A DNA stretch of 38,103 nt from a virus. The notes under the pieces are model-generated. The model was not told the DNA's origin, searched no databases, and saw only the letters and a list, made by a program, of their open reading frames with translations. The translations under genes were made by a program, and so were the position numbers. The stretch lies in IMG/VR virus record IMGVR_UViG_3300045996_003893, positions 1-38,103 of that record, one strand, 5' to 3'. Positions 1-36,086 of this stretch are shown piece after piece; position 1 is the stretch's first letter; each line of letters opens with the position of its first letter.

Positions 1-210
1 CCGCTGAGGTCCGCGCCGCTGAGGTCCGCGCCGCTGAGGTCCGCGTCGCGGAGGTCCGCGCCGCTGAGGTCCGCGCCGCTGAGGTCCGCGCCGCTGAGGT
101 CCGCGCCGCTGAGGTCCGCGCCGCTGAGGTCCGCGCCGCTGAGGTCCGCGTCGCGGAGGTTCGCGTCGCTGAGGTCCGCGCCGCGGAGGTTCGCGTCGCG
201 GAGGTTCGCG
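1..210. repeat. 15-bp tandem repeat array (about 14 units)
   Basis: The unit ccgctgaggtccgcg is repeated head to tail, with variants containing gtcgcggag or gaggttcgcg. On the minus strand each unit encodes one pentapeptide ([10 protein letters not shown] or ANLRD). Many adjacent units are identical at the DNA level, which points to recent slippage or unequal recombination rather than old, diverged repeats. The window is cut inside this array. Confidence 0.95.
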
Positions 211-326
211 CGGCCATCCCCATCCGCGGGCGCCGTGCGGATCACCGTACCCGTCCAGCGGTTGCGGATCTCAACCGTCCGCGCGGGTTCCTGCGCCGGG
301 CTGGCGCCCTGCTCCGGGGCGGTCAC
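1..326 (-). CDS. pentapeptide-repeat protein, N-terminal part (runs off the left edge)
   Basis: A GTG start at 326 gives a short leader with the motif [12 protein letters not shown], then tandem pentapeptides of the type A(D/N)LSG or A(D/N)LRD up to the window edge. Pentapeptide repeats fold as a right-handed quadrilateral beta-helix; in known proteins this fold mimics DNA or mediates protein contacts. The GTG overlaps the TGA of the gene upstream (GTGA), so translation is probably coupled. The missing C-terminus is very likely the partial ORF at 37775-38103. With a 4-nt end overlap (ccgc) the two halves make a 216-aa protein in frame. The DNA repeats are nearly identical, so the copy number may vary or be collapsed in assembly. 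The function in this phage is unknown. Confidence 0.8.
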
Positions 327-32671: not shown

Positions 32672-33070
32672 TCAGAATGGAGGTTCGATGGAGTCGTCCG
32701 GCGCGAGCGCGGGCACCACGTCGGTGCACAGCGCCTCGCGGCGGGCGAGGTATGCGATGAGCGCCTTCCCGGCGCCCGTGACTTCCCGGTCTGCGGCCCA
32801 CGTCACCCCGTCGGCGAGGCTCTCGAGCTGCGCCTCCGAGCCCCCGATCTGCACCCCGTACCGCACCAGCGCCCGCCGCGCCCCGGCCGCCCGCTCCGCC
32901 GGCCACGTGGCCGCGGTGCGCCCCTCGATGAGGGTGGCGTAGAAGCGCCGGAGGAGCCGCGCGGCCTGGCCGGAGAGTCTCCTCGTCGCGCGCTGCTGGA
33001 CGTGGCGGTCCCACGCGGCCACCAGGTCGTGCGCGTGGGTGGAGCTGAGCACGCGCACGTCATCCGGCAT
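32672..33070 (-). CDS. hypothetical protein, 132 aa
   Basis: Helical protein (MPDDVRVLSSTHAHDLVAAW, QAARLLRRFYATLIEGRTAA) overlapping VRR-NUC by 11 nt. No motif I recognise. Co-translated early gene. Confidence 0.6.
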   Translation of the reverse strand: MPDDVRVLSSTHAHDLVAAWDRHVQQRATRRLSGQAARLLRRFYATLIEGRTAATWPAERAAGARRALVRYGVQIGGSEAQLESLADGVTWAADREVTGAGKALIAYLARREALCTDVVPALAPDDSIEPPF

Positions 33071-34690: not shown

Positions 34691-35052
34691 GCGTCGTCGG
34701 TCGGTTCGGCGTTCGGATCGGGCGCGCCAAGCGGCGCCAGGACGGCGACGATGGCGTGGCGCCAGGGCACCTTCCCCTCGGGCGGCGTCTCCCACCGCAC
34801 CAGGCGGAGGCCCGGGGGGAGGTTCTCCTCGACGCCCTCGCGGTCGATCTCCCAGGGGCGGAGGTGCTCGCGCTGGACGAGCACGCGCTCCGTCCCGTCC
34901 TCCATCACCCGCCAGCCCACCCGGCGCTGGTAGCCGGCGGGCAAGACGAAGCGCGTCCCGGGCTCGCGGCGCGCACGCGCCCGGGTCCGCATCATCGCCC
35001 CCGCCAGCTCGGCCAGGTCGGCGCGCTCGTCCACCTCGGGAGCGGTGGCCAT
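34687..35052 (-). CDS. hypothetical protein, 121 aa
   Basis: MATAPEVDERADLAELAGAM starts a partly helical protein with strands RFVLPAGYQRRVGWRVMEDG and GLRLVRWETPPEGKVPW. It overlaps its neighbours by 1 and 4 nt. No family assigned; it belongs to the recombination block. Confidence 0.6.
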   Translation of the reverse strand: MATAPEVDERADLAELAGAMMRTRARARREPGTRFVLPAGYQRRVGWRVMEDGTERVLVQREHLRPWEIDREGVEENLPPGLRLVRWETPPEGKVPWRHAIVAVLAPLGAPDPNAEPTDDA

Positions 35053-36086
35053 CAGAAGGGGAGGTCGAGGCCGTCGTCCTCCTCGGGCGCCTCCTCGCCG
35101 TCGATCGCCACCTCGGCACCCTGCGCCTTCGCCTGCTCGCGCCGCTGCCACATGTCGTCGGGGCCGATCGCCGTCTTCTCCCCCTCCGCCGGCGCCGCCC
35201 CGGCGGGGGCCGCCGCCTTCGCGGCGCGCTTCGCCGCGCGCGCGTCGAGGTCGGCGTGCAGGTCGGCGAGCTTGTCGCGGGGGACGCCCTTCGCCTTCGC
35301 GTCGGCCAGCCAGGCGAACCACCGGTCCCCCGCCTTCACCCGCATCCCGTGCTCGCGCAGCGCGTCGAGCTCGTCGGCCGATGCGAGGACCACGGCCGGG
35401 ACCGTTTCGACCGCCTCGCCGCCCTCGGCGTCCATCGCCTCGGCGCGCGCGTTGGCGGCCACGTCCTCCATGTCCTGGGTGAACGCGTCGCTCAGGCCGA
35501 AGGTGGTGAGCGTGGCATCCACGTACGCCCGCTTCTTCGCCATCTTCAGGACGGTGTTCTCCGAGTCGCGCGGGCGGTCGACGTACTTGCTCTCCATCGT
35601 CGAGCAGGAGCCCACGCCGGATCCCACCGTCGTCCCCGTCTGCACGTGCACCAGCTCGCAGCGGATGACGTAGCGGTAGAGGCCGAAGGAGACGCCGCTC
35701 TCCTCCTCCCAGCCGACGAACTTCCGGTCCTTCCACTTCTTCTTCCGCTTCTGCCACGGCACCTCGCGGTCGTGCTGGACCTCCTGCTCGAGGATGGAGA
35801 ACTCCGGCCGGACCCCGTAGCCCGCGCACACCCGCTCGGCGCCGGGCTTCAGCAGGTTGTTCTTCCCCTTCCGCTTCCCGTCCTCGTCGGCCCGGTCGGT
35901 ACCGGGGATCACCCCGTAGTCGCGCCCGGGCTGGAGCGCCGCGGCGATGTACTCCCGCACCTCCTCCTGCTGCTGGATGACCTCCCGCACGGGGGCGATG
36001 GGTCGCAGGAGCCCGACGGCACGGTTCGGCGCCGCGACCAAGGCGGCCCCGGGGGAGGAGCCCCCGGCGCTCGTCTCGTCGTTCAT
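35052..36086 (-). CDS. annealase-like protein with SSB-type C-tail, 344 aa
   Basis: Core: VREYIAAALQPGRDYGVIPG, KNNLLKPGAERVCAGYGVRP, NTVLKMAKKRAYVDATL (about 177-193) and FGLSDAFTQDMED, resembling the ERF/Rad52-like single-strand annealing families found in phages. The last residues, EEAPEEDDGLDLPF, mimic the acidic C-tip of single-strand DNA-binding proteins (D-L-P-F), which recruits host repair proteins. ATG 36086 has GGAGG. The core family call is less sure than the tail. Confidence 0.65.
   Translation of the reverse strand: MNDETSAGGSSPGAALVAAPNRAVGLLRPIAPVREVIQQQEEVREYIAAALQPGRDYGVIPGTDRADEDGKRKGKNNLLKPGAERVCAGYGVRPEFSILEQEVQHDREVPWQKRKKKWKDRKFVGWEEESGVSFGLYRYVIRCELVHVQTGTTVGSGVGSCSTMESKYVDRPRDSENTVLKMAKKRAYVDATLTTFGLSDAFTQDMEDVAANARAEAMDAEGGEAVETVPAVVLASADELDALREHGMRVKAGDRWFAWLADAKAKGVPRDKLADLHADLDARAAKRAAKAAAPAGAAPAEGEKTAIGPDDMWQRREQAKAQGAEVAIDGEEAPEEDDGLDLPF

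What the first reader, a model, noticed from the sequence alone, without database searches (positions are those of the whole stretch)
35052..36086. Annealase-like protein carrying its own SSB-type C-terminal tip
The C-terminus EEDDGLDLPF copies the acidic tip that single-strand binding proteins use to recruit repair enzymes. A phage annealing protein with this tip could redirect host SSB partners to phage DNA.
Basis: partly seen in the sequence, partly recalled or inferred. Interest (0 to 1): 0.6.

Follow-up and report, generated by a model that had tools for sequence, protein, structure and literature searches.

The report
Phage annealing protein with SSB-like tail
A phage protein predicted to pair up matching DNA strands ends in a short acidic tail like the one bacterial single-strand binding protein uses to call in repair enzymes; many but not all relatives have it, it resembles the host's own tail, and what it does is untested.

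Summary
A 344-residue protein lies at 35052-36086 on the MINUS strand and ends EEAPEEDDGLDLPF. Its family (phrog_10048, function unknown) has no Pfam or NCBIfam name. Two AlphaFold2 models match RAD52 best, and 9 of 13 annotated phage or plasmid relatives sit near Gp157/Gam, exonuclease or SSB genes, so "annealase-like" is well supported but not proven.

The tip is not chance. It ends 38 of 163 distinct family proteins against 6 of 2,182 other non-SSB reading frames from the fetched loci. It is patchy: 1 of the 5 closest relatives ends in it. In some Firmicutes it extends to a whole SSB-type tail, and in 11 named genomes it resembles the host's own SSB tail more than other hosts' (permutation p about 1e-4; 0.026 within eight Bacilli). 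A few RecT proteins and one Erf carry similar tails.

Known annealing proteins READ the SSB tip; these CARRY one. Best reading: a host-matched SSB mimic that keeps SSB partners at phage DNA after SSB is displaced (about 0.5). Autoinhibition is the main rival. The idea that the tip replaces a phage SSB is not supported overall (Fisher p 0.13). Binding was not tested. I found no description in nine paper searches.

The parts
35052..36086 (-). Whole gene: putative Rad52-fold single-strand annealing protein, 344 aa, with SSB-like tip
35454..35999 (-). Predicted annealing core (about residues 30-211), the span aligned to RAD52
   Evidence: core pLDDT mostly 88-98; VIA-align Z 8.2-9.8 to RAD52/Mgm101
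35466..35561 (-). Most conserved block, residues 176-207 (ENTVLKMAKKRAYVDATLTTFGLSDAFTQDME)
   Evidence: invariant or nearly invariant columns N177, K181, M182, A183, K185, S199, F202, Q204, D205
35085..35453 (-). Variable region between core and tip (residues 212-334): helices and low-confidence linker
   Evidence: pLDDT blocks 41-82
35055..35084 (-). SSB-like C-terminal tip, residues 335-344, EEDDGLDLPF; predicted disordered
   Evidence: (pLDDT blocks about 39-48)

Best explanation
The gene encodes a phage single-strand annealing protein of the Rad52 structural superfamily, in an uncharacterised family (phrog_10048). Residues about 30-211 form the DNA-annealing domain, and a variable, partly disordered region carries at its end a mimic of the host SSB tip. 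Proposed mechanism: the protein coats phage single strands and displaces host SSB. Because each subunit ends in an SSB-like tip, the annealing filament still offers docking sites for host SSB-binding enzymes (RecO, RecQ, PriA, exonucleases, the SSB-binding part of DNA polymerase III; list recalled except RecO and PriA), so processing and replication restart continue on phage DNA instead of stopping when SSB leaves. Shown here: the reading frame, the tip, its recurrence above controls, its resemblance to the host's SSB tail in relatives, and the predicted fold. Inferred: annealing, SSB displacement, partner binding and benefit to the phage.
For: Family: phrog_10048 at E 1.5e-35. Fold: window model, Foldseek ranks 1-5 all RAD52 (E 8e-3 to 2e-2), VIA-align ranks 1-11 all RAD52/Mgm101/yeast Rad52 (Z 8.2-9.8); a model of a distant relative (L081) gave Foldseek ranks 1-9 RAD52 and VIA ranks 1-6 RAD52 plus the phage 80alpha Sak annealase at Z 6.8; viral library hits include proteins annotated RecT, ERF and Rad52. 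Context: Gp157/Gam, exonuclease or SSB within a few genes in 9 of 13 annotated records. Tip: 38/163 family against 6/2,182 non-SSB frames. Extended SSB-type tails, e.g. L081 KDPFANEGKPIDISDDDLPF beside phage SSB tail NDDPFGGEPIEFNDDDLPF. Host match: S. kofuensis annealase KDPFANDGKPIDISDDDLPF against host SSB DDPFANDSKPIDISDDDLPF, with 11 of 19 codons differing, so the likeness is kept at protein level. Similar tails in RecT (5 of 53 clusters) and Erf (1 of 46).
Against: No direct evidence of binding. The tip is absent from most of the family (33 of 171 80%-identity clusters have any strict tip) and from the ends of four of the five closest relatives, one of which has it buried. Foldseek E-values to RAD52 do not reach 0.001 and dsRBD folds score nearly as well (Z 7.9, 9.0). 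The window itself has no SSB by PF00436, and no exonuclease, Gam or Gp157 was recognised among the ten neighbours scanned. The window's host is unknown, so host matching could not be tested for this protein. In known systems the annealing protein reads the SSB tip, so carrying one could equally serve self-regulation.
Confidence: 0.5

Rival explanations
1. The acidic tail is self-regulatory: it folds back on the protein's own positively charged DNA groove (or a pocket in its own C-terminal region) and is released when single-stranded DNA or SSB binds, tuning loading and preventing useless binding.
For: T7 gp2.5, an ssDNA-binding and annealing protein, also ends in an acidic tail with a terminal Phe (sequence read). 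The E. [quoted passage not shown] The window's tip keeps acidity and PF but not the exact SSB sequence.
Against: An electrostatic role needs acid but not a terminal PF or the DPF..G.PIDI stretch, and would not predict resemblance to the host's own SSB tail.
Confidence: 0.22
2. The tip docks a phage protein rather than host enzymes: it stands in for a phage SSB in recruiting the phage's own replication or recombination partner, and is dispensable when the phage encodes an SSB.
For: In the Geobacillus-type group the four tip-less records searched (E2, D6E, L073, L172) all encode an SSB, while eight tip-bearing records of 27 kb or more (L035, L040, L067, L080, L121, L125, L129, L130) show none. 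Tip-bearing proteins lie directly downstream of tip-less annealases in L004 and L061.
Against: Over 153 records the association is not significant: tip+SSB 3, tip only 40, SSB only 19, neither 91; Fisher p 0.13. Independent pairs on the tree have no power. The tip-less Geobacillus-type annealases are near-identical in tail, so this may be one event, and L134, which groups with them, has both. The host match is not predicted.
Confidence: 0.13
3. The LPF end is a degradation tag read by ClpXP that limits the annealing protein's lifetime.
For: The last three residues LPF of SsbA are sufficient for ClpXP degradation in some Streptococcus mutans strains (abstract and passages of PMC5143411).
Against: The same paper reports no recognition in E. 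coli, in some S. mutans strains, or by purified ClpXP; many family tips are IPF, VPF or EFPF, or have one or two residues after the F, and the long SSB-type tail is unexplained.
Confidence: 0.06
4. The tip is a chance end of an acidic low-complexity tail with no function.
For: Family tails are often acidic and vary fast; most members lack the tip.
Against: Enrichment over frames from the fetched loci (38/163 against 6/2,182), recurrence in both large halves of the tree (16 changes against 24 in shuffles, at least 6 forced by well-supported branches), extended likeness to SSB tails with synonymous divergence, host match.
Confidence: 0.09

Closest known systems
Rad52-superfamily single-strand annealing proteins (human RAD52, Mgm101, phage 80alpha Sak, Erf, Sak3, RecT/Redbeta)
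   Same: Predicted fold of the core, N-terminal position, variable C-terminal region, neighbourhood of Gam/Gp157, exonuclease and SSB genes in relatives (context described in PMC8093625, passages).
   Different: No match to any Pfam annealase family at E up to 1. Known members bind SSB or its tail through their C-terminal domain (Redbeta: PMC8303780; Sak: PMC11846896); this one carries such a tip.
T7 gp2.5
   Same: ssDNA binding plus annealing (record annotation), with an acidic C-terminal tail ending in Phe.
   Different: OB-fold protein classed apart in PMC8093625; tail ends EEADEDGDF, without PF; it is itself the phage's ssDNA-binding protein, not a Rad52-fold protein.
Bacterial and phage SSB (PF00436)
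   Same: Acidic C-terminus ending in a hydrophobic residue plus PF; in Firmicutes relatives the longer tail is shared too.
   Different: No PF00436 match in the window and no OB-fold title recognised among the fold hits shown.
Sak4 with its cognate SSB, phage HK620
   Same: SSB tip (NDYPPF) is essential for coupling annealase and SSB (abstract and passages, PMC5928155).
   Different: There the tip sits on a separate SSB and is read by the annealase; here it is part of the annealase chain.

Membership tests
phrog_10048 (unknown function) | Match to the PHROG profile | tested here: met
   E 1.5e-35, 123.8 bits; ten relatives match at 1e-21 to 1e-134
Rad52 superfamily of single-strand annealing proteins | RAD52-type annealing-domain fold in about the first 200 residues | tested here: met
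   Predicted models only: RAD52 entries top both searches for two family members; Foldseek E not below 0.001 and dsRBD folds at Z 7.9-9.0
Rad52 superfamily of single-strand annealing proteins | Anneals complementary ssDNA; rings or filaments | not testable with these tools
   needs purified protein
Rad52 superfamily of single-strand annealing proteins | Gene context with ssb, gam/gp157 or exonuclease | tested here: inconclusive
   Met in 9 of 13 annotated records; not seen around the window gene, whose neighbours are unknown proteins, a PAPS reductase and a VRR-NUC protein
Pfam Erf, Rad52/22, Sak3 (DUF1071) or RecT families | Match to the Pfam profile | tested here: not met
   0 Pfam families at E up to 1; of ten relatives, two match ExoX-like_C above its cut-off in the C-terminal region and none matches an annealase family
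Bacterial SSB | OB-fold SSB domain (PF00436) | tested here: not met
   0 Pfam families for the protein; no PF00436 match anywhere in the window at E up to 1
Bacterial SSB | Acidic C-terminal tip ending in PF | tested here: met
   EEDDGLDLPF; strict rule
Gp2.5 family | OB-fold protein with acidic tail | tested here: inconclusive
   Acidic tail with final Phe shared; fold hits shown are RAD52, but an unlisted fold is not excluded

The most novel reading that the evidence does not exclude
Phage annealing proteins of at least three families (phrog_10048, RecT and Erf) have repeatedly gained SSB-like tails matched to the host's SSB, turning the annealing filament into a surrogate SSB hub that keeps host repair and replication enzymes working for the phage, the reverse of the known arrangement in which the annealase only reads the SSB tip.
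Probability: 0.35. Interest if true: 0.75.

Novelty: new variant of a known kind. Interest (0 to 1): 0.55.

Why it matters
Host range of phage annealases in genome engineering has been tied to whether the annealase recognises the host SSB tip (PMC10711431, passages). If some annealases instead bring a host-matched tip of their own, that is a second way to plug into host DNA repair, a simple rule for choosing or testing recombineering proteins in laboratory strains, and a case of short-motif mimicry that can be checked by deleting ten residues. It also offers an experimental handle on a widespread phage protein family of unknown function (phrog_10048).

Tried and rejected
Pfam, NCBIfam and PDB sequence searches with the window protein gave nothing useful. 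A 30-residue tail of L081 found no PDB chain.

Substitution idea (tip replaces a phage SSB): looked attractive in the Geobacillus-type group but is not significant over 153 records (Fisher p 0.13) and has no power on the tree; kept only as a rival. Of 154 records searched (22 with PF00436), two had no closed family frame and were dropped, and the window was added.

Alternative C-terminal module: a small helical domain (class A) never co-occurs with the strict tip (0 of 30 proteins; 0 of 12 representatives, Fisher p 0.068); suggestive only.

Frequency caveats: the scan used tip-bearing seeds, so pooled frequencies (26 of 126; 48 of 249 distinct tails) and the 38 of 163 lean upwards; the less biased figures are 13 of 58 clusters (before that scan) and 14 of 78. 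The regex dropped 11 family frames; one search did not use it. In some searches the frame extracted for L079 was not the family frame; later calls used the right one. One of 8 Erf loci (L382) was misread and one of 30 RecT loci (L398) looks misread; the Erf and RecT counts rest. For the second tip-bearing window protein no relatives were found.

Host-match caveat: 11 genomes, some closely related; much of the signal is the difference between Bacilli, Peptoniphilus and Halopseudomonas, and within eight Bacilli p is 0.026. In 6 of 11 genomes the own SSB tail is not the best match (ranks 2 to 7).

Full report
What is there. The finding's coordinates hold one complete gene on the minus strand, 344 residues, ending EEAPEEDDGLDLPF. 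Codon-position G+C (0.73, 0.47, 0.97) and stop-start overlaps with both neighbours support a real gene. The window is a 38,103-base IMG/VR virus record; its listing says such records are often fragments.

What family. The protein's one clear match is phrog_10048, of unknown function (E 1.5e-35; a second PHROG at E 0.22), with no Pfam or NCBIfam family at E up to 1. tblastn found relatives in 14 phage and 5 plasmid records. Scans with family alignments found 505, 541 and 522 candidate relatives in viral contigs (overlapping sets) and 182 in bacterial genome contigs, of which the best 80 are kept per scan. The conserved block is N-T-x-L-K-M-A-x-K-R-A ... S-x-x-F-T-Q-D.

What fold. AlphaFold2 with 51 rows gave a confident core (ten-residue blocks of 83-98 pLDDT over residues 31-200) and a disordered tail. 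In the PDB, Foldseek ranked RAD52 first to fifth (E 7.7e-3 to 1.8e-2), and VIA-align ranked RAD52, Mgm101 and yeast Rad52 first to eleventh (Z 8.2-9.8), above RNase III/Dicer-type double-stranded RNA binding domains (7.9 and below). A second model, of the distant relative L081, repeated this: Foldseek ranks 1-9 RAD52, VIA ranks 1-6 RAD52 at Z 9.2-9.7, with a dsRBD at 9.0 in rank 7 and the phage 80alpha Sak annealase at 6.8. The viral library hits include proteins annotated as RecT, ERF and Rad52. I take the Rad52 superfamily as likely, not proven.

What context. Among 13 annotated records read, 9 have Gp157 or Gam, an exonuclease, or SSB within a few genes: Geobacillus E2, D6E, Eggerthella PMBT5, Silvergun, PBR31, Cr-LKS3, the Bacillus carboniphilus plasmid, and the Nitrosococcus and Methylobacter plasmids. 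A survey of phage annealase genes describes the same kinds of neighbours (PMC8093625, abstract and passages). The window's own neighbours are less telling: unknown proteins, a PAPS reductase and a VRR-NUC protein.

Is the tip real. I defined a strict tip as PF within two residues of the end with at least three D/E in the preceding eight. It is met by 38 of 163 distinct family C-termini and by 17 of 2,193 other predicted frames from the fetched loci; 11 of the 17 look like SSBs by eye, most of them fetched as SSBs, leaving 6 of 2,182. These rows are related and one scan was seeded with tip-bearing members, so the Fisher value (6e-40) overstates the case. On a tree of 126 representatives (26 with tip), the trait changes at least 16 times by parsimony, 6 of them forced by well-supported branches, against 24 in shuffles: it is inherited in part and gained or lost repeatedly.

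Is it an SSB tail. In Firmicutes-type members the likeness runs past the last six residues: L081 KDPFANEGKPIDISDDDLPF and L035 DPFDGEVIEISDEDLPFDM beside the E2 phage SSB NDDPFGGEPIEFNDDDLPF. For 11 named genomes with a tip-bearing annealase I compared its last 25 residues with the SSB tails of the same and the other genomes: the own-genome total is reached in 5 to 9 of 100,000 shuffles, and p is 0.026 within eight Bacilli. In Sporolactobacillus kofuensis the annealase and host SSB tails differ in 1 of 19 residues but 11 of 19 codons, as expected if the protein sequence, not a recent DNA copy, is kept.

How widespread. By the same rule 1 of 46 Erf clusters and 5 of 53 RecT clusters have a tip, against 33 of 171 phrog_10048 clusters (difference from Erf p 0.003, from RecT p 0.14). 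RecT members L532, L538 and L542 carry a long DPFDG.PVD...PFD tail. So the tail is not private to this family.

What it does. In the papers read, annealing proteins bind SSB or its tip: Redbeta through its C-terminal domain (PMC8303780, passages; PMC9870868, passages), Sak of 80alpha (PMC11846896, passages), Sak4 of HK620 through the NDYPPF end of its SSB (PMC5928155, abstract and passages), and host range of RecT proteins has been put down to this (PMC10711431, passages). Here the annealase carries the tip. The most likely use is to stay attractive to host SSB partners after displacing SSB. Autoinhibition, docking of a phage partner and a ClpXP tag (PMC5143411, abstract and passages) are rivals; the substitution version of the second was tested and is not significant overall.

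Novelty. Nine searches of the paper library did not turn up a description of SSB-like tips on Rad52-, RecT- or Erf-type annealases; I saw listings and, for nine papers, passages, and most subscription journals are not held. A structural survey of the superfamily does not contain the word SSB in the main text held (PMC11783212, passages). T7 gp2.5 is the nearest precedent.

Noticed in passing
window 32672-33070, minus strand: A second protein in the same window, 132 aa, also ends in an SSB-like tip (...APDDSIEPPF). No Pfam or PHROG match and no relatives found.
   Followed up: partly
L532, L538, L542, L400 (RecT) and L439 (Erf): Other annealase families carry SSB-like tails, three RecTs with the long DPFDG.PVD...PFD form.
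   Followed up: partly
L004:5508-5906 and L061:3721-4161: Short proteins directly downstream of tip-less annealases end in DDDMGLPF and TADEIPF; possibly unusual SSBs.
   Followed up: no
L014:3875-4708: In a Bacillus carboniphilus plasmid the annealase core and its tip (SATDDFPFE) lie in two consecutive frames: a frameshift, sequencing error or split gene.
   Followed up: no
L018:2926-4002: A close relative has DDLPF followed by 12 extra residues, so the tip is buried or lost by extension.
   Followed up: no
window 1-220: A 15-base tandem repeat at the window's start that would read as pentapeptide repeats on the minus strand (reading inferred, not run).
   Followed up: no
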